DNA from: Ceratorhiza oryzae-sativae
Taxonomy: Eukaryota; Basidiomycota; Agaricomycetes; Cantharellales; Ceratobasidiaceae
Direction: 5' to 3'
NCBI GenBank assembly: GCA_030998015.1
Contig: JARWMV010000253.1
Span: 496,001 to 560,000 of the forward strand
Length of the DNA stretch: 64,000 bases
Positions 1 to 64,000 of the stretch are shown piece after piece (position 1 is the stretch's first letter; each line of letters begins with the position of its first letter). Under the pieces are notes generated by a model that was given only the letters and a program-made list of their open reading frames with translations, was not told the origin of the DNA and did not search any database. Position numbers and translations under genes: made by a program.

Positions 1-1813
1 CTTGATTCCAAGGAAATGCACAGGAAGGATACGGATATTGGAGCACAAGGCTTGCTCTGCTGGGGTTAGAAGATGAAGGGATTGCGCGTTCGCGAGATTC
101 AAAGGAACGACTGGTGTGCGACAAATTAAATCGAACTCGGCTAATCGGCTAAGTGGACATGGAACTCACCTGGACGGCGACCCAAAGGCCCAGCTTTTGG
201 AGTATTGTAAGATGGGTTAGACTCCCCACCTGGCGGCACGGAACCCCGGTGACCGGAGCCATTTCGTATTGGCCCCATCATGCGGTCAGCTCGCGCCCGT
301 TCCTGGCGCATCATTCGTTAGCGTCGAAGTCAAAAGTTACGGTTAGCACCTTACTCGTGCCAGTCGTTCCCGGTCATATCGGTCTGCCTCAGCAAACGTT
401 GTTATACCCATTGTGCGATAGTGCTGTAGGTCAGCGATTCGGCGCTTTAGCGTGTTTTCGTCTAGTAGAACGGTCTGTTGGTGCGGAGGCAATTGGCGTG
501 CAGGAAGTACGTACAAAGTAATCCAGCAACCAAATTCTCAAAGTCGTCGGCCGTCTGTAGCCGAGCCAACGGCTTGAGCTTGTTGATTGCCTCGCGATCC
601 TCCTTTGAACGTTTTCTCTCAGCTTGTTGGATCTTCGTCTTTTGGTCAGCATGGAGCCATGCAAGGGATTAGTGAAACCTACTCGCTTGTGATCGGTAAG
701 TCCTCGTTCAAGAACAATCGCCTTTGCTTCCACTCTGGCGTCCAGACGTTCGTTGTACATGTCGAGTAACGCCAGCTTGAGTTCGAGAGAATCGGCTGAC
801 TCTTCTACGGCGGGTATCTGAGGCTCGTCGTCTTCGTCCTCGTCCTTTGCACTTGCATCACCATCCTTTTTACCCTCACCATCGACCTCCATAGGTGCAT
901 CCTCACCCTCAGGCTTCTCCTCATCCTCGGGCTGATCAGCGCCCCCAAACTCGAGCACAATCCCAAACTCCAGATCCTTTACCAGATCCTCCGCGTCATT
1001 TTCATGCTCATGCTCGAATTCTCGTCGACCGGGCATAAATCCTGCGACTTCGTGGTTGGTTGGACCAGAAACAAAAGGTTGGGTTGGGCCAGATTTCTTC
1101 TTAAGCTCTTCACGGAGGTTGATGATACGCCGTTTCTTGCGTTCTTGAAATACCTCGTGGTCAATATCGAATTCGTGGTCTAAAGACTGAAAGATGGGTG
1201 TCAAAAGCGAGTAAAATGATGAATCGGATTCGTACTGGTAAAGGCCAATTTGTAGAGTTGAGAAAGCACTCGGTATAATGTTTCTCGACCTCTTCGGCGG
1301 TTCGCGTGCCTATAAGTTCGGCCACGGCAGACCAATTTCCCATACCACACTTCGACAATCCGTCGAGCAATTGAAGCTCCCTACTGGCGAATTAGAATAA
1401 TTAATTACTAGGCATCTTACCGACTCACTCGTCAGCTCCCCAGTCCTCGACGAGAATTGGGTAAGAATGGCGACCCTATAACATTCATTAATCCAAGGTC
1501 GTGTACAGCCACAGCGCACTTACCTCGACGCGATACTCGTGCCAGGCTTTATGATTTTCTGGCTCTCTTCCCGCGAGAAAACAAGCTGGACAAAGATCCA
1601 GCTCCTCGCACCCTGGTGCTGCACATTTTATGCGAACGTTTTTCGACAGGTCGACCCGGCAAGCATCACAAGTGTTGACATAGAAATCGCCACCTTCGCC
1701 TGTATCGTATCCAATGAATAGCTTTCGCTAATTGGGTCCACCATGTACTTACCATGGCCTTCTTCGGGCTCGGTTTTAACAACCGGCTGACCGTTGGTTG
1801 TCATGATTGACAT
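1..1813 (-). CDS. ADA2: SAGA/ADA transcriptional adaptor Ada2 (3' end beyond window)
   Basis: Subunit of the histone acetyltransferase module of the SAGA/ADA coactivator in the nucleus, where it partners Gcn5. Exons in order show an N-terminal ZZ zinc finger (about residues 27-75, starting TCDACRVDLSKNVRIKCAAP and continuing with CPACF), the Ada2 linker HSYPILVEDWGADE, a SANT domain (LDGLSKCGMGNWSAVAELIG, then HYTECF), a long acidic middle part, the conserved AERKRSKEDREAINKLKPLA block, and the start of the SWIRM domain (LLTPAEQALCSNIRILP) right at the left edge. Introns of about 45-60 nt separate these parts, including a 44-nt one near 640-683. Start is the ATG at 1813 or at 1804 in the same frame. 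It lies 173 bp downstream of the MNS1 stop on the same strand, with a CACGTGAC box just upstream of its start. Identification is firm; the last exons are missing. Confidence 0.95.
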
Positions 1814-1842
1814 AACAAGCGCACAACGCACAGACCATTACG

Positions 1843-1850
1843 CACGTGAC
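1843..1850 (+). promoter_or_regulatory. CACGTGAC box upstream of ADA2
   Basis: An 8-bp E-box-type CACGTGAC lies about 30 bp upstream of the ADA2 start. The same octamer recurs in several other promoters of this window. It resembles binding sites of bHLH factors such as Cbf1. Function is inferred from motif and position only. Confidence 0.4.
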
Positions 1851-1986
1851 TCGGCGCTTTCTTGCATAAACAAACCAGCCACTACACAAGGTCTAAACTT
1901 ACCACACAAACGGGCTGTTACATTTTCAACGCGCTTTCTACATACAGATGTGCTTTCGTGGATTTCTTTTTTGATAGCTATCATAA

Positions 1987-4468
1987 TTACGTGAATCCAG
2001 TGGCAATATTTGGGGTGAAGATGGGTAAAGGATGCGCCTAACAGATAGCAAGCGAAGAAAGCACTGAGTTGAGCGAATAGTCGCATCCGATCGGTAACTT
2101 ACTTCAGTGTTGAATACGTATTCTGCGACCAGCCATTAGAGAAACAGAAAGTCGGCGACTAAAAAGTAGCTCACCATCCAACGGAATGGTTCTAGAATCG
2201 TCGAAAAGCAAATACAAGTACTTCAAGGTCTCAGCCTGGTAATGCGGTTAGACTCTTAACAACAAACCAAAGAGATCTCCTACCAGGAAGAAAGTTTCCA
2301 TGTTGTCCGTAAGCTGCACTGGGTCCTCAGTAACGCTCTGGACTCCCGAGTAACCACCTCCTGGAACCTTGCAGTGCTTCTCAATAGCTTGAAATACCTG
2401 CCATCCCCATTCACGATATTTGGGGTCCCCAGTCATGCGCCATCCCAAGAACAATGACTCAACCGTCTCAGGCCTGTGTTTAAACACAACTTGAATTATC
2501 TTCTCACAGCCGTAAAGTTGACCTTTTAGTTCACCTCAAGATATACCTAGAGTCAAAACGATTCTTGATATGCCAATCCTTGGTCTTTGACTGTGCGTCC
2601 TCGGCAGTGTAGAATACCGCAATCTCTGGGGACAACCCTCTGAACGGCGTAGGTTAACCCCGCATAAGGAGCAGACCCACAAACAAGCTACGCACGTTTT
2701 CGTCTTGTGCGTGGCCATACATGTCCTAGTCAATCCCTCACCCAGCTTCCAATCGTTCCGAGCCCTCGAGGACCAGGATCCGATTTCAGCCGGATTTAAA
2801 CTCCGACCCTCGGCAACACCTAAGAGAAGCGACCCTCCCAAGAAACAAACTAAATGGTCTTGCTTTGGACTGATACGCCATTTCCTGTGCAAGCGTGTTG
2901 CTGATTGTAAGCGCGTAGAGCCGACCGAGGAGGCAAAAGGGCTGTTACTCTTTCAACCTCGCCGAGTGAGTCGCTTCCATCTCTGCGATGTAAGTCAAAC
3001 CGCTCAATGGAGTCTGAAAAACCAAATGCTTGTGAAGCGCTTCCATCGCTTGGTCGTACATCTATATCTTGTGTGAGTATCGCATATAGCCGCTCAATAC
3101 GGTACACGAACCACGCGATACACTCGCTCGGTACGGTTCTAGACCATTACGAGTCAGCCCGCTATTTCCTTGTCACGAGAGCAATCTCACAGTTTGAAGG
3201 TATTGCTTCCTGGATCCAACGTAACGGATTAGCAAGGTACCACATTAGCTTTTAAGTTTGGGGACCAACAGCAGATACTCGTAGTATGAATCACCTCGTG
3301 ATCCCAACCGGATGTCACTTGGAATAAATTCTCCCGTTTGCGCACTGAATCGAGACACAGGGATGTTGAGCACCTGATCCGTCGAGGAAGCAATCAAGTC
3401 CCCACCTCATGTAAATGGGCACCAACGCCCCATCAACAACGTTATCTCCCTTCAGAGCATCCTTGACCACTTTCATCACCTGTAAATCAACTCTTAATCA
3501 ACGCCCCAGGCCCTTTGAGTACATGCCTCTACCTTCTCCGCAGTTCTCCAATACACATCATCACCGGTGATATGACTGAGATACCTAAATTCGAGCTGAA
3601 GCGTGGTGGCCTCGGCTGTACTAACGGGCTCTCCACTCCAGTTCTGGTTTGGCTCACTGTGAAAATTAACGTTGGGGACAGGTAGGCCGTGAGGTGTGTT
3701 GAACGCCGGCAAAAGGCGATCGGCGAGCTCCTTTGCACGTTGCAAGTATATCTTGTCTTCCCCAGAAAGTGCGTACGCGCTCAACAGTCCCCCGAGCACG
3801 CGAATCGTAATCTTCGGGAAGTATCGTATCCTCGGTGTCGGCGTGGCTTGTGAAAGTTCACTTGATACATGCTTACCTCAAACGTACTATACCGCCCATC
3901 TCGATCAAAGTCCAAATCCCGCGCGACCCAGTCTCTTGCACGCTGATACTCGGTGGAAAGTTCTTTCCCCATGATGAGCATGGTGTCGAGAGAGTCTGCG
4001 ATCATATACCCAATCCCACGGCTGGTGGTCAGGTTGGACCCGATCTTGGTGACTGGGTGATAGTCATCACACCCAAAGGCGTCACGCTCTGTGAAGGGTC
4101 AATCAGGTGAGCCTTTGTTTCAATGCAATCATGTCGCTAGTGCATACCATATCCACTCCATGCATGCTGTGAATGTGGGCGTTGATATGCAATAAAACTC
4201 GGAAAATGAACTGAATATTTCGAACCTTGAATGCTTTCACGATTGTCTCCCGCCTCACAGGGTCAGCGGAAATATTATCGGAGCCGGAAGGCGCCTTGGG
4301 CTGTGTCTTTTCCGGCTGGCGCGAGAGCGGCTCGTCCTCGTCGGGAAACTCGGGCAGCCGCCGAGTCTGGATGCGAGCATTACTCATCAACCTGAGCGCT
4401 ACCCATATGAACAGAACCGAGCCCAAGCACAAGAGCACGACTCGTTGTAAGCGGTTCAACCCAAGCAT
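1987..4468 (-). CDS. MNS1: Class I mannosyl-oligosaccharide alpha-1,2-mannosidase (GH47)
   Basis: ER/Golgi glycosidase that trims alpha-1,2-mannose from N-glycans. The product is a type II membrane protein: a short cytosolic tip, one hydrophobic anchor (RVVLLCLGSVLFIWVALRL, about residues 9-27), a polar stem, then the GH47 domain. Conserved blocks appear in order: AFGCDDYHPV, SRGIGYMIADSLDTMLIMG, DGRYSTFE, LGGLLSAYALSGEDKIYL, STAEATTLQLEFRYLS, GLSPEIAVFY, RPETVESLFLGWRMTGDP, DNMETFFL, ETLKYLYLLF, and the C-terminal EYVFNTEAHPLPIF that supplies the Ca2+-binding Thr. The last exons are short and joined by roughly 50-nt introns; the stop is the TAA at 1987-1989. The start at 4468 puts the anchor at the extreme N-terminus, as expected. 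About 10 exons. No key residue seems lost. Confidence 0.95.
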
Positions 4469-51509: not shown

Positions 51510-52757
51510 TCAATCGCTAACGCACATGTCCAAGTAAAGAACCGGAGCAAAGTCTTCCGGATTCGGGTGCTTCTTATGTTTCTTATCGACTTTTTCGAAG
51601 CATTTCGAACACTGGACAAAGTGGTCAGACAAGCCAGACAAAATCCACGAGTCCATGCCGTACCAATGAGTCATTACCGCAGTGTTTGCAGTCCCAGCGC
51701 ACACCCGCGCGCTTCTTCTTAATCAGTTCTTCCTGGCTCGCATCGCAAGAATCACACTTCCACCAGCGGTTGAGCGAAACGACTGGCATGTAATCAGACT
51801 GATTTGGGTGAAGCTTGTGGTGCTGAGCCGCCGATCCGATACAGTTCGGACACTGGTGAACGCATGAGTATTGTTCGAGTCGTATCGTAAGAGGGACATA
51901 CCAAGTTCATGTCACGGCAACTTCCTACATAGCAAATGGATAAATATTTTACCGGTAATAAGCAAATGAACATAACGTACTGCACTTGAAAGCAAGGTCG
52001 CCGTTCTTGGAACCGCATCCCTCACATTCCCAGGTCGCATCACTGTAAAGATTCCACATAAAGTCCTCATCCCTGGGATGAGCTGGATGGACGTTTGCGA
52101 CCCCACGACCAGTGAAGCAGTCGAGGCACAGGTCCGAGTCTGGGCAGGACCGGCATTTGGCCCGGAGAGGCGCATCACGGGTCCCACAGCCGTCACAGCC
52201 CCAGATGCCCTCGGCGGCAGTCACGAGTGCAAAGTTGTGGGGAGCGTGTTTGGGGTGATGCTCGGTGGGGTTCTTGTGACAATCAAAACACTGCAGAGGG
52301 CAGTTAGTCAGGTTATGCTCGAGCACGGAGTCGTTCGAGTCACTCACCAGAGAAAAGCTATGGCACAACACTGGCGAGACAACGGGTTAAATCAACCTCC
52401 TAGAACGAATGTATAGCAGACTCCAACTTACAGCACTTGTAGCGAACTGGGGCGTTGGTTATCCCACAACCGCGGCAAGACCAGATGGCAGCGTCTTCGT
52501 TGTCCGCCTGCTGGAGGTGTCCGTAGGCCACACGAGCGTCGTGGGCCATCTGCGAATATCGATGATGAACAATCGGAACTCGAGTCGCTATGGCTCGAGA
52601 ATAACAAACGTACTGTGCTCCGAATCTCAGGCCCTGCGGTGACAGCATGATAAGCAGGCGGGGCGTCGGAATCTGCGCCAGAAGGCCCCGCCGTTGGGCG
52701 GTTTGTCGGTGTCTCGACAGGCTTTTCCTTGCCTGGGAGAAAATCAAAGAGACCCAT
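51510..52757 (-). CDS. Tandem ZZ-like zinc-finger protein (intact array member 1)
   Basis: Not a known named gene. Starts MGLFDFLPGKEKPVETPTNR, a Pro-rich linker, then successive C-x2-C modules introduced by aromatic residues: AAIWSCRGCGITNAPVRYKC; LQCFDCHKNPTEHHPKH; GIWGCDGCGTRDAPLRAKC, then CRSCPDSDLCLDCF; ATWECEGCGSKNGDLAFKC; CPNCIGSAAQHHKLHPNQSD; WWKCDSCDASQEELIKKKRA; RWDCKHCG; and a last CSKCFEKVDKKHKKHPNPED. The spacing and the C-terminal His pairs resemble ZZ-type zinc fingers, which usually mediate protein contacts. Four or five fingers, no catalytic domain. The last module ends at a stop at 51510. Three decayed relatives follow on the same strand. Function unknown; a role as protein-binding scaffold is inference. 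Confidence 0.75.
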
Positions 52758-53169
52758 GGTTGAATTGCGAGTTGTAGAGGTTGAGTTCAAGACAATGAAC
52801 ACTGAGGGTCCGTCGTAACGCGCCGAGCACGGTTTATATAGTATTTGGCCAGGCGCACGTGCTGTGCCTGATCCCGCTCGTGCCCCGCATCCCCTCGGAT
52901 CCGCGGCAATGTATTCGAGCACATACACGTCTATCACTTCTTCAGCCTTCGAGGGTGATCACCCCACAGTCGTATTTGGACGGCGGGGATCCAGCAGGCC
53001 CGCTTTTTGCTCGCCGAGTATCCCCCATATCGATAAACCAGCTTCTGTACATTGCAAAAAAGCACCAATGTACATACAAAGCTCAACCGAGCCCCAAGGA
53101 GAATGGAGATCACGGGCTTACGAACTTGGGATGGCACCAATCAACTAATTGATTGTACGACAACTTTGG

Positions 53170-54242
53170 CTACTTTCGAGCTGGAGCTACATATGCTAAT
53201 CGGAGTCCGAGTCTGGCGTGTACAAAGGGGGGTATAACCGGGGTGTAATCTTCCGGATTGGGATGTTTTTTATGCCTCTTTTCAGGCTTCTTGAAGCACT
53301 TGCCAAATTCAAATTGTTGCAAAAATCTCAGGAATCAACAGGATCAACAGGACCTACCAAGGACGTATCGTATAATATTTACAATCCCAGCGAATTCCAG
53401 CGCGGTTCTTGTTGTTCAATCCTGTTTCACACTTCTCGCACCCATTCCATGCCCAACAACGGGACAAAGTCAGCACCCCTACATAATCCGAAGCAGAGGG
53501 GTGTAATTTGTGATGCTGCGCGCTTCGCCCAAGACCTCTAGGACACTTATGACAAGGTCAGCTTGACGTTATCCGGCAGTTTGAACATGACTACTAGAAA
53601 CAAGGGACAAGTCAATATAAGATCGCGACACGATTCTGCATAAAGATAGATTCAGGTAGTTGGCTCAAGATCAGCCACTAGACGTACTACACCTGAACGC
53701 CAGATCGCCGTTTGACGCTCCACACCCTTGACATTTCCAGGATGCGTCGCTATACGTAGCCCAACTAAAATCCGCCGCGTTATCACGCTCAGGATGGAGT
53801 TCTGAAAGCTTAATGCTCCCGAAAGAATTTTCGCAAAAATCCACGTCAGGGCATTCCAGACACTTGATAGGGACTGGTGAGTCGGCGACATCGCAGTTGT
53901 TGCAGGGCCAGATGTTGCTCGACTCGATCACAAGTGCAAAGTTGCGAAGTCGGCGCTTGCTGTGACATTCGCTGGGGGTTTGTGACACTCGTAGCACCGA
54001 TCAGATAGTGCTGAGTATCGATTCCACTGAGCGTCAATGAATTAACAGTGGGGAGCTATTGTACAATAATTCGGGAGATCTTCATTAGCTAGGATTTTGT
54101 GGATAAGGACCCTCTCACAGCACTTGTAATGTATGGGCTAATTAGTGGTCCCACACCCTCGACAAAACCGGTGGCCCTCCGCAAATTGATCGAGCGTTCT
54201 CTTTCCTTCGCTTTTGGAGAACAGAGAAAAGAAGTGAATCAT
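53170..54242 (-). pseudogene. Decayed ZZ-like zinc-finger gene (array member 2)
   Basis: Same architecture as member 1 but broken. It starts MIHFFSLFSKSEGKRTLDQF, and its first finger reads RFCRGCGTTN, in-frame TAG, then PIHYKCC (member 1: GITNAPVRYKC). A second break is at a CCCCC run near 53990, where CYECHKPP and ECHSKRRLRNFALVIES are in different frames. Later fingers remain readable: NIWPCNNCDVADSPVPIKCL, ECPDVDFCENSFG, ASWKCQGCGASNGDLAFRCS, and the last module FGKCFKKPEKRHKKHPNPED. Stop at 53170-53172. Confidence 0.75.
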
Positions 54243-54830
54243 TTCGATAATAGTGGGTGGTCGAGGAATAGCTAGCCTACGCTCCTGCCTTCAACCGGTT
54301 AAATAAGCCTTGGATATATGCTCTGGACCCCGACGGGTCCGTTCTAATTGAATAATGCATTGATGGGCACCCGATCCAGTCAATCGCGCTGACCAATTCC
54401 TCAATTCTTAAATCAAAACGATGCCAAGACACATATAGCTTCTACGGCTTGCGCTCTCGTTGCTCACATGGCCCCAAAGTGGGTTAAGCTCGGCGCTAGA
54501 TGGCCGGTTCAACTCGTCGAATCATGGTTGAACCGAGGTGTTTGCTATCCGCCGGCCGCGGGCCGCGCTTTGGGTGGGATGTCCGTGGACTTGTGGTTAG
54601 TGTCCCGAGGAGCATGATAACGATCAGCGTCAGCCGTTCATATGATCCGCTCTGACAATAGGGTTGTCGCCATTGCTGTGCATCTTGACAACCCTTGCCG
54701 CTCACCCTCGTGGAGCTCCTTTCAGGCAAAAGCCGTTTGAATTTGATTGAAATAATTGCTTCGCCTGACAGGGGTGCAGCTCCTATGCCATAAATCGCAT
54801 AGCGTAAACCAATAATAGCCTATAGTAGGG

Positions 54831-55685
54831 CTAGCTTGAGTCACTCGATGACTGCCATGAGCCATGTACTGTCGGAATAAAGTCTTCGTCATGGTAGTGT
54901 GTCTTGTACCTTTTCTTGACTTTCTGGAAGCATTCAACGTGCTGCGGTTACAAATTAGCCTGGCCCAACTTATTTCTAGAACTAGGAGACCCCAACAGTG
55001 TTTTATGTTTGCAGTACTTTCGTTTCCATCGTATCTCGGCACCATCTCTCCCTTTGATTTCAGGGCTGGGCTTGCCATTGGTAAGTAGTCTTTGGGACCT
55101 TGGTTAGGTGTGTGGTACTGTGTCACTTCTTCAAAGTGTATCGGGTACTGAGGACGGATACGGTAAATCAATGCGTACCGGAAAGTGCGAAACGAAGCCG
55201 GGAATACCGGTATAAATTCATGACACCTACCTGATGGGTTGTTCACATGTTATCCATCGCACAAGGCGGTGTATTACTACCCTCTGCATCTCGAAGCCGG
55301 GTGGCTACCCGAGAGCTCACAGCCTCGGCACTCCCACAACGGATGTATCTAAAGGGTACAACCAGACTTCTCACATGGACGATCGAAGTGAATGGCCGCC
55401 AGCCCAGGCTGATCTAAACAGTACCTGCAGAAATCAGTATTTGGAGACTGCAGCCGTGTGAAGCGCACCGAAGAACCGCGGCGGTTGCAGTGGTCCCAGT
55501 AATACCCGTCCGCGTAGAAGATAACGACTGCAAAAAATACCGCATGTTGAAAGTGGAGTGCAGATATGTTCCTGTGACACTGGCGACACTACAGGATTGA
55601 GAATGCCATTTCGAACTAGGCGACTTCGCGCTCGATCCCGAATATTATTGCCTTTGGTGGTAAACATACCAGAGAAGAACGACAT
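54831..55685 (-). pseudogene. Decayed ZZ-like zinc-finger gene (array member 3)
   Basis: It starts MSFFSGMFTTKGNN. The remains of fingers are in shifting frames: DHCNRRGSSVRFTRLQSPN then DFCRYCLDQPGLAAIHFDRP corresponds to GCDGCGTRDAPLRAKC...LCLDCF of member 1, with several Cys missing. The C-terminal module HVECFQKVKKRYKTHYHDED is readable up to a stop at 54831-54833. No continuous reading frame can be built. Confidence 0.6.
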
Positions 55686-55896
55686 CTTCAGCGGCGGCGT
55701 TAAAGACAGTAGCGAACATGCTATTTACATCTTATCTCCTTCCGTACTATCACGGCGACTAGTGCTTGGATACTCTACTCCGATCTGTTGTATCGCCACA
55801 GATGCCTTCTACATGCCGTGAGGTTGTTTAATAGGAACTAATTTGGGCCTTGTGACGCCAATAGAAGCAGTACACTTGGTCTGAGTCACCTGGTGG

Positions 55897-56923
55897 CTAC
55901 AATGAGGCATGTACTATTGGAATACGATCCGCTTCGTTGGGGTGTTTCTTTTGATTTCTCCCTACTTTCCTGAATCATGTCGCGCACTTCAGTTTTATGT
56001 CGGTTTAGTCCAGCTCCAAGTTGAGAATTAGAAGACCTCACCAGAGCCAAATCCGTACAATACTTACATTTCCATCGTATATCAGTGCAATTGCTCTCCC
56101 TAGTTTCCGGACTTGGCTTTTTACATCCAACGCAAGTCCAACCAAGGGCCCGCCCACTCATGGATATATAGTTCTTGGGGTCGGGATTCGACCTATGATG
56201 TCCTGGCACTTGTTTGACCCATGTCGCGCGCTGTGGGCGGGTAGGGTACATCAGTATGCCTTGGAAGGTGTGTAGAAGGAGCCGCAAATACAATTATTAT
56301 ACCATGACGTTGCCCTGATGAACGATCCACGGGTTAATCGTTATTCACTATATCTAAACGCCGGATCGCCATTTGACCCACAAGGCCTTGGCATCTCCAT
56401 AACGCATTGCTACATGCGGTACAGTAAAAGCTCTCCTCGTTTGGATGCTCAGAGTAAGCGCTCGTTACGCAATGCTTCGTGTAACAGGCCCCACAAAAAC
56501 CGATATCCGAGAGTTCAAGGCATTTGACACGCATTAGGGAGTCGCAACCTTCACAATTATCGCAGTACCAAGTATTTCCAGGAAAAATAACAAATGCGAA
56601 GCATGTAGCGTGTTGAGGGTGGTGCGTAGATATGTTCGTGTGACATCGGTAGCCTACAGGGTTATGATATTCATTCAAAACAAGGTAAATTTACGAGTGA
56701 CAAAGAACTCGCCAGCGAAAAGCTATTGCACGAAGCTAGACGCAAGGTGGGAAAATTGACATTAGCCATAAGCTTTGCTTACTACGGTCGTATCTTGATC
56801 CGGAGGTCAGCGAGACCACATCCTTGGCAAGACCACTGACGTTTAAGTCTATGGCGACCCCACTCTTCTTGGCCCTGACTTTTGGTTCCTTTGATAGTGG
56901 GGATACCAGAGAAAAGAGGCAAT
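55897..56923 (-). pseudogene. Decayed ZZ-like zinc-finger gene (array member 4)
   Basis: The 5' end reads LPLFSGIPTIKGTKSQGQEE but with ATT-GCC where a start ATG is expected. First finger WSCQGCGLADLRIKIRP then stop. Middle fingers TWYCDNCEGCDSLMRVKCLE and GFCGACYTKHC are clear. The next, ALWRCQG, loses frame. WTCVGCKKPSPETRES and IRWKCKYC follow, and the last module has KVGRNQKKHPNEADRIP up to TAG 55897-55899. Same strand and order as the other members. Confidence 0.65.
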
Positions 56924-57494: not shown

Positions 57495-59377
57495 CTAGTT
57501 TTTCTTCGTCCCCTTTCCTTTCTTCCTCACCCCGCCCTCTCCCTCCGCCTTTCGTTTTTTCGATCCGGCTCCTAACGTCTCCGATATCTCCCCCAACGCA
57601 GCTTGGAGCACACGTTTCTCCCCAATTCGGATAGTTAGGGCGTGTCGCTTGTTGGTAGTCAGTGAAGTGAGCCTAGAGGACAGTTCGGCCTCGTCGTTCT
57701 GTGGAACGGGATATGAGCGCCGGTTTGGCTCGGGCAGAAGAGAACAGGGATATTCACTTGGAGCGTTGTGGGGTACATCGTGAGACGTTTTTTGAGGACT
57801 TCTTGAATTGTGGTGTACACTTCTTGTAATTTCGGTTTGGGAGGTTTTTCTTTCTCTTGTGCACGTTCCCATTCCGATCGCGGAAGAAGAAGAAGTTGAA
57901 CAAAATAAAGGAGCGAAGAGGGCAATGAAGCGTTCATTTCTAGTGTGAATGTACTGCATAAAGACGTTGGTCTTTCGTGAAGGTCAGTTAAACGGCGAAC
58001 ACTCACTCGTCTCCGCCCATTTCTAGCCACCAGTCCACACGTTCTTTCTGTTCATCCTCGGCTAAAGGTACACATTCCACAACTACACTTCCTTTAACTT
58101 CGACAATATCCAGACCCGTGCCGAGATCATCAACATAGCCATATCGACGAAGGAGATCTGAGTTGGGTGGATCTCCATATGTGTTCCACTGGGATGAATA
58201 GATGAAATCGGAATTAATGACGAAAATAATAAGGTACACACGATCTGTTCGCCCCTAGGGACAGGCTTTGTCGTCACCATCTTGAGGACCGTTGGTTCAT
58301 AGAAAAGTTTGGCCTGTGCATATAGGTTAGCACGTGTTGGCTAGAGCGGATATTTGCCTACATTCTCCCCACCGTACCGAGCATTTAGCATGTCTGCCAT
58401 CGGAACCATTGCTACATCTTCTACTTTTTCTTCTTCGCCGTCACTATCACTGTCGTCCTCTTCCTCCGCCGGTTTCTCTGAACGAACCGATTCCATGCTC
58501 ACGTCCGCATCCTGCGCATGTTCACCGGAAATCGGTTGGACTTCGTTATCTTCGTATGGGTCTTCACCGTCACTGTCGCTCTCCCCACCAGCGTCCCATT
58601 CCTCAACGTGAAAGCTGCGGGATAGTATACGACTCCCCATGATATGAAATTGGGAGAGAGTATAGTATGTATCGATGTGTTCGGGCTTAAATATGTCTGG
58701 TCTCGACTAAGTAGCACATTCAGAAACGAGACTGAACTGTGGGGAAGGGGATTGTACCTGAATGAGAGGTATAAGGTGATCATTGTACTCCTTTTCTGCC
58801 TCGTCGCGGCCTATTTTTTCTGGCAAACACAGGTTATCGTCAGATATTATATTCGAACCCCTCCAATGTACCTCCAATTGTGGTCCCTTTTAGCTCCTGG
58901 AGATCCGTTTCAGGCCAAAACATGGGTGTATCAAACGTTATAGGCATGGTATCTGCTCACATGAGTTCTCTGTGCGGGCAATCCTCCAAGACGGGAAATT
59001 AACTCACCAAGATAGCCATCCCAGATACTTTCATCCCTTCTCGCCGCCTCCCACATCATACACAGGATGAGCGGAGTCCAGCCCTTTCCTAGTCGCTTCC
59101 ACTCATTTTTACTCAAAATTGCCTTTAGTGTGCAGTTTCGAGTGGATAGTAGTAATTCGCGAGGGATCTCGAACAAAACATGTTTTTTCTAGAAAGCCAG
59201 TTTCATATATGTCACGCGTCAGTCTAGGGAGAGATTGCCAGGACGGACAGGTATATCCTTAAGAGCTACAGCACTCCAGCCACATTTATCGAGCTGTGAG
59301 AGCGTCATATATTGTTCGTCGATAACCCCGCCATGGGATTTAAACCAGGACACAAGCTTCGCCCCAAGAGCAGCCAT
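57495..59377 (-). CDS. RKM4: SET-domain ribosomal lysine methyltransferase Rkm4 (SETD6 family)
   Basis: Protein lysine N-methyltransferase; yeast Rkm4 methylates ribosomal protein L42. Start MAALGAKLVSWFKSHGGVID with DIP as the typical first strand; then LFEIPRELLLSTRNC, LILCMMWEAARRDESIWDGY, FDTPMFWPETDLQELKGT, DIFKPEHIDTYYTLSQFHIM, GSRILSRSFHVEEWD, a long acidic insert (EEEDDSDSDGEEEKVEDVAM), VPMADMLNARYGGENV (SET N-H-like core: ADMLN), LKMVTTKPVPRGEQI, WNTYGDPPNSDLLRRYGYVD (conserved NTYG and RRYGY). The C-terminal domain has LQEVYTTIQEVLKKRLTMYP and ALTIRIGEKRVLQAALGEI, ending in a basic tail KKGKGTKKN. A 59-nt intron (GTGAAT...CCACAG) joins YPTTLQ to NDEAELSSRL and removes an apparent frame shift. 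The catalytic Asn is replaced by the family's D-M-L-N form. Confidence 0.9.
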
Positions 59378-59550
59378 GGTTATCGTCGCGATTATTCGTT
59401 CAATGGCCGTATATCTGAATTAAATAGCGTAACGGAGGAGCCACTCAAGGGATGCCTCTCTATGTAAATGTCTGGAGAGCGCAGATGATCTTGGAAGCAA
59501 AAACTTCGAGCCGAGGCGGCGCTCAAATTTGGTAAGCAATTGCAGTGTTG

Positions 59551-59558
59551 CACGTGAT
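59551..59558 (+). promoter_or_regulatory. CACGTGAT box upstream of Josephin gene A
   Basis: About 100 bp upstream of the ATG at 59659; variant of the CACGTGAC octamer of other promoters. Confidence 0.4.
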
Positions 59559-59658
59559 AGGTTCGCACGCATCACCCTCCACCTCCGCCAATCACATCTG
59601 TTGCCGACCCCTATCCGCGCCGCCCCACTGTTATCCTTAGCACCAAAACCCTGGCACA

Positions 59659-60878
59659 ATGATAGATGTACCAGCTACCATAGCATTCATCACTACCGTT
59701 CGACCTTATGTGGAGCCATACGTCGAACCCCTCCTATGGCGAGGCGTCAGCTGGTTCATAGGCAATGCCGAACGCCCGAGCGACGCAGTGCGTGAAGTCG
59801 AGCAGTTCAAAGCCAAGCAGAGGGAGAAAGATGGTGAAGTTATGGAGGCGCTTGGACCTTACATCCATCATGAACGGGTGAGTTGAATGGAGTCGCCTGA
59901 GCGATAGGTGGACTCTAATCGGCATTGGGGCATGAGCAGCAAGAGCCCGGATCGATGACGTGTGGGCAGTATGCCTTGAATGCTCTGTTACGTAAGCACA
60001 CTTTCTCGTGTCTTGCTCAATCGTGCTGATCTATTAGTTTGTGCGTTTTAGAAGGAAATTACGTGCGTACACCCATAGTTACCACTCATTTTCATGCTGA
60101 CCCTAGTTTCAGTTTACATCCTCGGACCTGACTGGTATAGCAAAAGAACTCGACGCAAAAGGTGTGAAAGGGGATGGTGGGGGAGAAAACAACGCCAATA
60201 TGGACAACACTGGTATGAATTTGCATTCTGGTTGTGTACGATGACGAGCGCTAACAGAGGACCACAGGGCGGTTTTCTGTCCAGGTTCTTGAGAATGGGC
60301 TGAAAGAGACATTTGGACTGACGTAAGTCTGGGAATGGTTATAAGCGTAGATATCCTGATTTTAAATTATGTGAGGATATACATAGTTTGACAAAATGGC
60401 GAGGTCCGGATATGCGAGTCTTCCAGGCACACCCAGAGTATGGGCTCGTTTCCCCTGCTTTTCTCCCCTAACTCCTTGTTTTCTTAACTCAGGACCCAGT
60501 TGGGGTTTCTCCTAAATCTCGAACAACACTGGTTTACTCTTCGTCGATTCGGCCAACGACAAGGCAAGGGGTTTTGGTTTAATCTCAACTCGTTCCTATC
60601 TGGGCCTGAATGGGTCGGAAGCGGATATATAAAGATGGTGCTGCAACAGGCTGAGCAAGAAGGTCAGCCAATTCATCCAAATCATTGTGGTTGACATTAG
60701 ATTAAGCCATCCGAGTTCAACAGGATACTCGGTATTCGTCGTCCGCCCAGCAGATCCATCAAATCCTGAATGTGGCCTGCCGGAGACAGAGGCGGATATT
60801 TTAGCCGAAACATTAGATGAGTCGATGCAAAACACGCCTCTGTCTCCACGGGTTACTGGTAGTTCGAGCTTGGTTTAA
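59659..60878 (+). CDS. Josephin-domain deubiquitinase, ataxin-3-like (copy A)
   Basis: Cysteine protease removing ubiquitin. Josephin blocks appear in order: MEALGPYIHHER, QEPGSMTCGQYALNALLQGN with the nucleophile Cys in T-C-G-Q, YFTSSDLTGIAKELDAKGVK, NANMDNTGRFSVQVLENGLK, LTKWRGPDMRVFQAHPE, LLNLEQHWFTLRRFG with the catalytic His, WFNLNSFLSGPEW with the catalytic Asn, and EGYSVFVVRPADPSNPE. About eight exons; stop 60876-60878. Ahead of the usual Josephin start (Met 62, position 59842) is an extra segment that is also conserved in copy B: FITTVRPYVEPYVEPLLWRG, VSWFIGNAER, AVREVEQFKAKQ. It contains a 12-bp tandem duplication (YVEPYVEP). Polyglutamine and clear UIM motifs are absent. Note Tyr instead of His in the usual C-x-Q-H. 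Confidence 0.88.
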
Positions 60879-60900
60879 ATCTGGAGAATAGACCCTGTCA

Positions 60901-61137
60901 ATGGAAATGAGTCACTTCAAAGGCCCATCGAGTGCTGCAATCACCAAGACGATAGACAAGATATTCGGGGTTAGTAGGCGGCTGTTTCTGGGCGTAACAC
61001 TTGCTATGCTTTGGGCCATTTTGCTGTATGATTGTCTGCGGCCGATACCAACGGAGCTACTCTTGGACATACTTGTGTGTTCCGGTTTCAATCAGGTATT
61101 TGAGGACATGCTGTCTCCAAGCGAACGAATAGATTAG
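60901..61137 (+). other. Short ORF with a membrane-like segment after the Josephin gene
   Basis: 78 codons starting at an ATG 22 bp after the Josephin stop: MEMSHFKGPSSAAITKTIDK, then LFLGVTLAMLWAILLYDCL (membrane-like) and RPIPTELLLDILVCSGFNQV. Not recognised. It could be a 3' exon of the Josephin gene joined by an intron removing the stop, or chance. Confidence 0.3.
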
Positions 61138-61506
61138 GTTGCAAGATGGAAATATGCATGAATTAAAAATTCGGTGCATAAAAACGCATTCTATCCAGAC
61201 ACAGCTCACGTAAGAACTTTTAGACGTGAATGACAGAAACAGACCTAAGCGACAGGCAGGACGCAAGAGCGCTACATAGGCCGTGAGTTCCATATTTATG
61301 TAGATATATATGTAGATAAATACTGACTCAACGAATGTGGTCAACCCAACCAGCCAGAAGGGGCGTCCCCTTAAGAGTTGGACACCTGAGGCGGACAAGC
61401 TGAGCGACGCATCTGCTCTACAAGAAGAACCAAAATCCAACAAATATCCACGTGCCCCCAAGTTGTGAGACCTCAACAGACACCCCATCCAAATCCCACC
61501 CAAGTG

Positions 61507-61617
61507 TTAACTATGATGCTCTTGGTCATACTCGAAAACCTCTGAGAACATGACAAAATAACCTATACCATGCGTTAATGCGCCGTGAGCAGACATGACA
61601 CTGCGCCGACCTGGCAT
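61507..61617 (-). pseudogene. Truncated mirror copy of the C2H2 gene 5' end
   Basis: Starts at ATG 61617 with MPGRRSVMSAHGALTHGIGY, FVMFSEVFEYD, the same as the C2H2 gene at 62334, then runs into unrelated sequence and a stop after 36 residues. It lies in the left arm of the inverted repeat and carries the mirrored promoter. Confidence 0.8.
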
Positions 61618-61949
61618 GATTATTCTGTGAGCAGCTGATAAGGTTGCTATTAGCTCTAGTGGATGAGGGATGAGAGAGAGAGAGAGAGAGAGCATATATG
61701 GGTTTATATCGCTCCGAAAGATGCTGTGGCGTCGACATGCATCATGCTCTTCTCGCATTATGTTTGAGGGTTTCACATTGAAGTTTGGCGCCCATCTAGC
61801 TCATCCATGCATAATTGGGACACTCCGAACAAGATTTGGCGACTTGACCTGACTTTATGTGACCTTACATCAGATCATATAGTCACGTGTTGCACACCGA
61901 CGATCGTAGATGTTTGCCTTATGGGATAATTCGGGCCTCGTATTCATCA
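61513..61949 (+). repeat. Inverted repeat, left arm (about 437 bp)
   Basis: Pairs base by base with 62006-62438: position x on the left matches 123955 minus x on the right for the inner part, changing to 123951 beyond the (GA)n tract (left 21 nt at 61672-61692, right 17 nt). Only a handful of substitutions were seen over the arms (for example gatcATATAG against gatcGTATAG), so roughly 97-98% identity. Contains GTCACGTG at 61882-61889. Confidence 0.93.
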
Positions 61950-62005
61950 TGTTTCCTGGATTCATTAACCTTATCGCATGAAGCATGAGGCCTGCTAGCC
62001 ATAAT

Positions 62006-62438
62006 TGATGAATACGAGGCCCGAATTATCCTATAAAGCAAACATCTACGATCGTCGGTGTGCAACACGTGACTATACGATCTGATGTAAGGTCACATAA
62101 AGTCAGGTCAAGTCGCCAAATCTTGTTCGGAGTGTCCCAATCATGCATGGATGAGCTATATGGGCGCCAAACTTCAATGTGAAACCCTCAAACATAATGC
62201 GAGAAGAGCATGATGCATGTCGACGCCACAGCATCTTTCGGAGCGATATAAACCCATATATGCTCTCTCTCTCTCTCTCATCCCTCATCCACTAGAGCTA
62301 ATAGCAACCTTATCAGCTGCTCACAGAATAATCATGCCAGGTCGGCGCAGTGTCATGTCTGCTCACGGTGCATTAACGCATGGTATAGGTTATTTTGTCA
62401 TGTTCTCAGAGGTTTTCGAGTATGACCGAGACCATCAC
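62006..62438 (-). repeat. Inverted repeat, right arm (about 433 bp)
   Basis: Reverse complement of the left arm; 56-bp spacer between arms. The outer part of this arm is the promoter, 5' UTR and first about 100 bp of the C2H2 gene. Contains CACGTGAC at 62066-62073. Confidence 0.93.
62066..62073 (+). promoter_or_regulatory. CACGTGAC box upstream of the C2H2 gene
   Basis: Exact octamer 261 bp upstream of the ATG, duplicated in mirror image at 61882-61889 in the left arm. Confidence 0.4.
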
Positions 62439-63209
62439 GTTTGCGATGTGAGCACTGCTACGACTTTCAAAGTCAACTCATTTGAGCTCCGGGAAGATGG
62501 CTCTCGAATATTCTATCTTCGGGGGATTTTGCACATGATAGACAATGTTGGAGACCTGTGGTACTATAGCGCCTCAACCATGAACTGGCAGTTAAGTTGG
62601 CTATATAACTGCCTGTCAGATGCAATAGAATATGTGCTGGTAAGCCTCAAAATGTGTGGTTTGTAATGCTCGAAGAGGCCTACACTAACGTTCGCCGGTT
62701 CAATCTTAGCTTCTCCGCCCTTACATTGAGCCGTGCATAAACCAACCGAGAGTTTATCCTTCAATTGTGAATGGGGTGAGCACTTTTAGTGCCTTTGCTT
62801 TGACATAGCCACCAATCTTTGCTTCTGTATTCAGATGAGTCGCAGAGAAGTTGACAGCATGTTCGACGAATACATGACGCATCGCAATGGAGCCCGTTTG
62901 CACAAACTTAGCAGTATTATCTGCCCGCTTTATGGATGTGGAAAGAAGATGAGGCGCCCACATGCACTCAAGGTACGTACAATGAACGACTAAGATGCTC
63001 TTGAAGAAATGACCATACCTGTACCACACAGGACCATCTATACTTCCATTTCAAGATCAAAGGTCAATACGCTATATGTATATTCTTAATGGTGACTTAC
63101 TACCTATCGCATAGCTTACCCGTGCCGCCATTGTCCCCGAGGATTTGAGACGACCACCAATCAGAGGCGGCATGAGAAGATTTGTCGTGCTCCGGGCCGA
63201 TCTAACTGA
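62334..63209 (+). CDS. Small C2H2 zinc-finger protein
   Basis: Starts MPGRRSVMSAHGALTHGIGY at the ATG conserved in both repeat arms. Exon 1 continues FELREDGSRIFYLRGILHMI and STMNWQLSWLYNCL. Exon 2 LLRPYIEPCINQPRVYPSIV; exon 3 MSRREVDSMFDEYMTHRNGA then a first finger CPLYGCGKKMRRPHALKDHL, YFHF (C-x4-C-x12-H-x3-H, split by an intron); last exon YPCRHCPRGFETTTNQRRH, EKIC (C-x2-C-x12-H-x3-C), ending RAPGRSN at TGA 63207-63209. Probably a DNA- or RNA-binding nuclear protein; the rest has no known domain. Five exons. Its promoter and first codons belong to the inverted repeat, so this gene or its mirror arose by inverted duplication. Confidence 0.75.
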
Positions 63210-63754
63210 GCTGCGTTGTTTAATCCTCGAATTCCCATTATATTGCCCGAACGGCATAGTTGCCCTAAATTTCTTTTGACTGTGGTATTTGGCTCGCTGG
63301 GTGCTTGTTCTGCTCAGATGTACGCGCTTTGGTTGTTACAAAACTTTCCACTTAGTTCGCATGACTCAGTCCGATACATTGAACATGGCGAGTCTGTTTT
63401 CGTTTCTACACAACCGTCCGTTGTCCCTCTCCATAAACCACAAATTATGGCCTGGGGGCAGTGGTGCCTCATGGTTCAAGCAAGTTTTGCGTCGCTCACA
63501 AGACCGGAGACAGTACGGGCTGCCAGCGGGATCCTTCAAGTGTTATAAAGATCGACAAGAATCGTGAGAATGTGTTGATTTAACTGCATTCTTGGGTTTT
63601 GTCATATGTCCTGACAAGATCCAAGTTTCGGCGTGATGCAGTAAGGCTATTCTTCATCCCCCACGTGCCACATTCACACGGATCACGCTATGACTTCGCC
63701 AATCCGACGGAACCAGAACCCTGCAAACGCGTCATCCCACCTGCGACCATCACA
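63210..63754. other. Upstream region of Josephin copy B
   Basis: No gene recognised. Short open frames exist (for example 63216-63548, without ATG start). The last about 80 bp align with the upstream region of copy A (AACCAGAACCCTG against ACCAAAACCCTGG). Confidence 0.4.
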
Positions 63755-64000
63755 CTGAACCTCCCGACTGTACTCCGATTTATCACTACCGTCCGGCCGT
63801 ATATCGAGCCGTTGTTTCAGAGAGGTGTGAGCTGGGTGATTGGCGACGCTGAGGGTTCAGACGACGCGGTTCAAGAAGTTGAACGATTTCTAGCGAGAGA
63901 GAGGGAGAGAGAAGGTGGCATTATGGACACGCTCGGACCTTATATTTATCATGAGCGGGTGAGTTTCCTTGTGTTAGTGAGTTGTAAGCCGGAACGCTGA
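63755..64000 (+). CDS. Josephin-domain deubiquitinase copy B, 5' part only
   Basis: First exon of a paralogue of copy A, cut by the window edge. It encodes RFITTVRPYIEPLFQRGVSW, VIGDAEGSDDAVQEVERF and IMDTLGPYIYHER, and ends with the same splice donor (CGG|GTGAGT, exon end 63958) as copy A. Where copy A has its upstream ATG, copy B has CTG (63755-63757); no other in-frame ATG exists until 63923-63925 (MDTLGPYIYHER), the position equivalent to the usual Josephin start. The four-residue duplication of copy A is absent. Whether the catalytic exons follow cannot be seen. Confidence 0.8.
   Translation: MNLPTVLRFITTVRPYIEPLFQRGVSWVIGDAEGSDDAVQEVERFLAREREREGGIMDTLGPYIYHERVSFLVLVSCKPER

What the first reader, a model, noticed from the sequence alone, without database searches (positions are those of the whole stretch)
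61513..62438. 0.93-kb near-perfect inverted repeat that duplicates the promoter and 5' end of a zinc-finger gene
Two arms of about 435 bp, separated by 56 bp, are mirror images with only a few substitutions and a length change in a GA microsatellite. The right arm continues into a C2H2 gene; the left arm carries the same promoter and first about 30 codons, then breaks off. The result is two head-to-head copies of one promoter driving a real gene and a 36-residue truncated product. Transcription through the centre would give a long hairpin RNA that could feed RNA silencing against the gene's own leader. A fold-back assembly artefact is the main alternative, though the differing arms argue against a simple one.
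Basis: partly seen in the sequence, partly recalled or inferred. Interest (0 to 1): 0.75.

Follow-up and report, generated by a model that had tools for sequence, protein, structure and literature searches.

The report
Local inverted duplication of gene start
A fungal chromosome carries a 430-base back-to-front copy of the start of a zinc-finger gene right beside the original; it is most likely an ordinary copying accident rather than a gene-silencing device.

Summary
Two arms (61514-61949, 62006-62437) are reverse complements at 424 of 432 aligned bases, plus a 4-base GA-repeat indel, around a 56-base spacer; chance does not give this. The genome is a 48.8-Mb fungus whose ataxin-3 genes match Ceratobasidium/Rhizoctonia best. 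The right arm runs into a five-exon, 211-residue zinc-finger gene model. Its family alignment begins inside the arm and crosses the outer edge, so the right arm is probably the source and the left a truncated copy; only about 16 of the aligned residues lie inside the arm. A whole-assembly search found no second copy.

Best reading: one local fold-back duplication, by template switching or hairpin-primed synthesis, no longer fresh (1.4-1.9% divergence). The silencing idea is possible but unsupported: Argonaute, RdRP and RNase III domains exist, but the two presumed promoters point outward and would give same-sense leaders, so a hairpin RNA needs read-through from outside. An assembly artefact is unlikely but cannot be excluded without reads. 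Ordinary kind of mutation; low to moderate interest.

The parts
61514..61949 (-). left arm: inverted, probably derived copy
   Evidence: 8 substitutions and one 4-nt indel against the right arm
61507..61617 (-). truncated 36-residue reading frame (with stop) at the start of the left copy
61672..61692 (.). GA microsatellite in the left arm, 4 bases longer than in the right arm
61703..61708 (-). TATA-like element of the left copy
   Evidence: read from the sequence; inference
61950..62005 (.). 56-base spacer (loop)
62006..62437 (+). right arm: probable source copy; upstream region plus first 34 codons and 2 bases of the zinc-finger gene
62247..62252 (+). TATA-like element (TATAAA) upstream of the gene
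   Evidence: read from the sequence; inference
62334..63209 (+). zinc-finger gene model: exons 62334-62639, 62710-62775, 62835-62972, 63032-63062, 63115-63209; 211 residues; one C2H2 and one C2HC-spaced finger
   Evidence: GT-AG introns of 70, 59, 59, 52 nt

Best explanation
A single, local, inverted (fold-back) duplication in a Ceratobasidium/Rhizoctonia-like fungus. The 5' end of a zinc-finger gene (right arm) was copied once in reverse orientation just upstream of itself. The most likely route is a replication or repair strand that switched template (or primed on a hairpin loop of about 56 bases), copied about 430 bases and returned. The copy has since drifted by about 1.4-1.9%. The consequence is two presumed promoters firing away from each other: one drives the full gene, the other a 36-codon dead end. 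Shown: the structure, no second copy in the assembly search, the reading frames. Supported by comparison: right arm is the source. Inferred: the template-switch mechanism, promoter activity of either arm, absence of selected function.
For: Near-perfect arms with short spacer. In the own assembly, searches with the palindrome and the right flank returned only the locus itself, and the left flank returned the locus and the neighbouring ataxin-3 copy, so not a transposon family at that sensitivity. Flanking bases at the arm ends show no direct repeat, by eye. The family alignment starts at about residue 20, inside the arm, and runs on past residue 34 where the arm stops, so the left copy breaks off mid-domain. 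Both arms start TGATG and end CATCA, which would offer 5-base annealing at each switch point. Two of the 8 mismatches lie in the outermost 10 bases (Fisher P 0.013, chosen after seeing the data), as expected if those bases are junction microhomology and not copied. In yeast, foldback inversions form through ssDNA hairpins with stems as short as 4 bp, and loops have a median of 35.5 nt where MRE11 and SAE2 are intact (PMC7467729, passages).
Against: No ancestral or sister-strain DNA was available to show the unduplicated site. The 5-base termini and the outer mismatch cluster were noticed post hoc. Only about 16 aligned residues of the family domain lie inside the arm, with 3-4 identities (my count). 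Relatives carry a further N-terminal part (about 120 residues in P0013) of which no match better than E 0.36 was found in 58000-66000, so the right arm's upstream part is not itself shown to be ancestral for the family. A 430-base switch is far longer than the short-range events of PMC8794818, whose largest TSM-like pattern was up to 59 bp (passages). A mismatch-free run of 213 bases over the core upstream region (P 0.040 in 20,000 random placements, indel ignored) weakly hints at gene conversion or constraint.
Confidence: 0.75

Rival explanations
1. Assembly or library artefact: a chimeric or fold-back read, or a mis-join of two haplotypes, produced the palindrome.
For: Fold-back chimeras are a known artefact (recalled). 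The assembly has 253 contigs, and two short contigs (C63, C35) carry a 99-100% identical stretch, so alternative haplotypes or recent duplicates may be present in it.
Against: Arms differ by 8 substitutions and an indel; a 56-base spacer is not mirrored; the left arm ends in unique sequence that belongs to the locus (an ataxin-3-like gene upstream, its diverged tandem relative downstream). A simple fold-back would continue as mirror image. The site is interior in a 653-kb contig. A second, near-identical locus was not found.
Confidence: 0.1
2. Natural silencing locus: read-through transcription makes a roughly 430-bp hairpin RNA that is diced into small RNAs which repress the zinc-finger gene's promoter and leader (Mu killer-like).
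For: Piwi, RdRP and RNase III domains are in the genome. A gene on the same strand ends 635 bases upstream and could read through. The fold is extremely stable. Rhizoctonia solani had the most confirmed and replicated fungal hairpin small-RNA loci in PMC9757828 (passages).
Against: Promoters in the arms point outward and give same-sense leaders; no transcript or small-RNA data; no Rfam match in 58000-64000; about 2% divergence gives no sign that pairing is maintained. In Mu killer itself, read-through transcripts were not linked to silencing (PMC3440606, passages).
Confidence: 0.08
3. Fold-back transposon or MITE that inserted upstream of the gene and supplied its 5' end.
For: Long inverted arms with a short loop. 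The gene's relatives have a different N-terminal part, so its 5' end could be borrowed.
Against: No second copy in the 48.84-Mb assembly search (the search skips very common words), no target-site duplication seen, no other arm-like inverted repeat in 153,217 bases; family-related coding sequence lies inside the arm.
Confidence: 0.04
4. Same duplication, but since recruited as a selected bidirectional promoter (second transcript regulatory or antisense to the upstream ataxin-3-like gene).
For: 213-base mismatch-free run over the TATA-like and CT-tract region (P 0.040); the left transcript would run antisense towards the 3' end of the upstream gene.
Against: Marginal statistic; no expression data; the short ORF is a simple truncation.
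Confidence: 0.08

Closest known systems
Fold-back inversions / inverted duplications (yeast, PMC7467729; human, PMC3907307, seen only as search listing)
   Same: inverted copy beside its source with a short unique spacer, as a hairpin-primed or template-switch product would give
   Different: those are large and often end in further rearrangement; this one is about 430 bases, interior, and returns to the original flank
Template-switch mutations that create hairpins (PMC8794818, passages; PMC7954356, search listing)
   Same: a switch and return yields a reverse-complement copy in one event
   Different: typical events are tens of bases or less; largest TSM-like pattern in PMC8794818 was up to 59 bp
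Maize Mu killer (PMC3440606, passages)
   Same: partial inverted duplication holding a gene's terminal/promoter region and 5' part, with a flanking gene that could read through
   Different: Mu killer silences a transposon in trans and its effect was demonstrated; here no transcripts or effect are known and the target is a host gene

Membership tests
local inverted (fold-back) duplication | two near-identical inverted arms with a short unique spacer | tested here: met
local inverted (fold-back) duplication | one arm is part of a longer source unit, the other a truncated copy | tested here: met
   right arm continues into a gene with relatives, left stops at codon 34; caveat: only about 16 residues of the family alignment lie inside the arm
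local inverted (fold-back) duplication | microhomology at both switch points relative to the unduplicated ancestor | tested here: inconclusive
   both arms begin TGATG and end CATCA, but no ancestral site is available
MITE / fold-back transposon | target-site duplication | tested here: not met
   flanks printed show no direct repeat at the arm ends (by eye)
MITE / fold-back transposon | dispersed copies | tested here: not met
   only the palindrome itself found in the own assembly
endogenous hairpin-RNA silencing locus | RNAi machinery present | tested here: met
   Piwi 13 matches, RdRP 24, RNase III 4, counted exon by exon and not as genes
endogenous hairpin-RNA silencing locus | a transcript across both arms and arm-derived small RNAs | not testable with these tools
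   no RNA data
C2H2 zinc-finger protein (PF00096) | score above Pfam's curated cut-off | tested here: not met
   23.3 bits against 25.2, two stretches
C2H2 zinc-finger protein (PF00096) | paired Cys/His zinc ligands with zinc-finger spacing, conserved in relatives | tested here: met
   C154, C159, H172, H176 and C184, C187, H200, C204 invariant in the three aligned proteins; the second finger ends in Cys, so C2HC

The most novel reading that the evidence does not exclude
A natural, gene-specific, self-silencing locus in a basidiomycete: an inverted copy of a regulator's own promoter and leader yields long hairpin RNA that feeds Dicer and tunes or epigenetically switches the same gene.
Probability: 0.06. 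Interest if true: 0.65.

Novelty: new member of a known kind. Interest (0 to 1): 0.25.

Why it matters
As found, it is an example of how a fold-back copying event can create a second presumed promoter and a long palindrome beside a gene in a single step. PMC9757828 says exploration is needed to show clearly whether long hairpin RNAs drive RNAi naturally (passage); this locus would be a concrete test case, because both arms have distinguishing variants that let small RNAs be assigned to an arm.

Tried and rejected
MITE/fold-back transposon: rejected on copy number and flanks. Rfam: no match in 58000-64000 at gathering scores. Bacterial promoter/terminator scan: not applicable to a fungus, not used. 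First protein search with an incomplete 189-residue model: none of 4 candidates at E<=1e-3; a profile of five family peptides then gave 1 hit among 1149 candidates, Ceratobasidium sp. 392, 343 aa, E 1.9e-60. The first exon table was off by a base in places and was corrected. Search for the relatives' upstream N-terminal part in 58000-66000: nothing better than E 0.36. Weak alignment between 60825-63740 and neighbouring DNA: none at E<=0.5. A RIP-like mutation bias was considered by eye from the contexts and not pursued (too few sites).

Full report
Observation. The palindrome is present as described: arms 61514-61949 and 62006-62437, 424 of 432 aligned bases identical, 8 substitutions, a 4-base difference in the GA/CT tract, and a 56-base spacer (one search finds it without gaps). 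In 60500-63500 the longest exact inverted match is 120 bases; 200 dinucleotide shuffles reach at most 20. The RNA fold is -856.2 kcal/mol against -264.6 (sd 6.4) for 20 shuffles. At 40 bases or more it is the only inverted repeat reported for the 64-kb window. No other one of 50 bases or more was found in 153,217 bases scanned (24 of 35 loci then held plus the window extended to 73 kb; 11 loci from the same stretch left out).

Setting. The window lies inside a 653-kb contig of a 48.84-Mb, 253-contig genome. Two ataxin-3/Josephin genes flank the locus on the same strand. The left one (59659-60878) is 90% identical over the first 73 residues to ataxin-3 of Ceratobasidium sp. AG-Ba. The right one, from about 63.75 kb, is a diverged tandem relative (67.97% and 68.8% DNA identity over two stretches) and hits Josephin at 117.6 bits. 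The top three of 12 database hits for the right one are Ceratobasidium or Rhizoctonia. So this is a fungus of that group; the species is not established.

The gene. The right arm continues into a five-exon model (62334-63209) with four GT-AG introns of 52-70 bases and 211 residues. Pfam zf-C2H2 gives 23.3 bits, just under its cut-off of 25.2, but all eight zinc ligands are shared with relatives; the second finger is C2HC. A relative with the same N-terminal domain and fingers is encoded at C244:900198. Weaker candidates are C244:902150 (E 0.002), C238:41952 (E 0.15) and C233:286892 (E 0.45), accepted on my reading of the translations. C63 and C35 hold near-identical copies of the N-terminal domain. 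Outside this genome, one protein was found, 343 residues, Ceratobasidium sp. 392 (29% identity over 91% of the query, profile E 1.9e-60).

Direction. In alignments with these relatives, similarity starts at about residue 20 (window 62391), inside the arm, and continues past the arm edge at 62437. The right arm is therefore part of a longer unit and the left copy, which stops after 34 codons and ends as a 36-residue ORF, is a truncation. Caveat: the within-arm part is only about 16 residues with few identities, and the relatives' own upstream N-terminal part is not found nearby (best E 0.36). So the gene's upstream part may have been replaced earlier, and the direction is supported, not proven.

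Origin. No second copy of the palindrome was found in the assembly, its right flank is unique there, and its left flank matches only itself and the second ataxin-3 gene. No target-site duplication is visible. That fits a one-off local event better than a transposon. Each arm starts TGATG and ends CATCA, and two of the eight mismatches fall in the outermost ten bases (P 0.013, post hoc). Both fit short annealing at the two switch points, but without an unduplicated relative this stays inference. Divergence is 8/432 (1.9%, 95% interval 0.8-3.6%) or 6/422 (1.4%, 0.5-3.1%) without the outer ten bases. The duplication is thus not a fresh event, and gene conversion could make it look younger than it is. 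A 213-base run without substitutions covers the CT tract and TATA-like element (P 0.040, indel ignored); I treat that as weak.

Function. The duplicated upstream regions face outward. Transcripts from them would share the same sense leader and would not pair with each other. A hairpin needs a transcript that starts outside and crosses both arms, for example read-through from the left ataxin-3 gene, 635 bases away. Piwi, RdRP and RNase III domains are encoded in the genome, and fungal hairpin small RNAs are documented, with Rhizoctonia solani prominent (PMC9757828, passages). But nothing here shows transcription or small RNAs. Mu killer is the nearest precedent; there, read-through transcripts were not the ones linked to silencing (PMC3440606, passages). 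I therefore rate a silencing role at under one in ten.

Artefact. A simple fold-back read would mirror onward without end and would not differ at eight sites plus an indel; here the left arm ends in sequence proper to the locus. A more complex mis-join cannot be excluded without reads, and the assembly does contain near-identical stretches on short contigs.

Noticed in passing
59659-60878 and L004 about 755-3038 (window 63755 onward): Two ataxin-3/Josephin genes in tandem on the same strand flank the zinc-finger gene; the left lacks the long glutamate/glycine-rich C-terminal part seen after the right one.
   Followed up: partly
G000:C63:44958-45263 and G000:C35:111979-112284 (L036, L037): 99-100% identical copies of the zinc-finger family's N-terminal domain on two short contigs: alternative haplotypes or a recent duplication.
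   Followed up: no
211-residue protein, residues about 20-100: An N-terminal domain with no Pfam match, shared by a small zinc-finger family; outside this genome one Ceratobasidium protein was found.
   Followed up: partly
52000-56690, minus strand: Several ORF fragments of 28-58% mutual identity, apparently a diverged tandem gene family.
   Followed up: no
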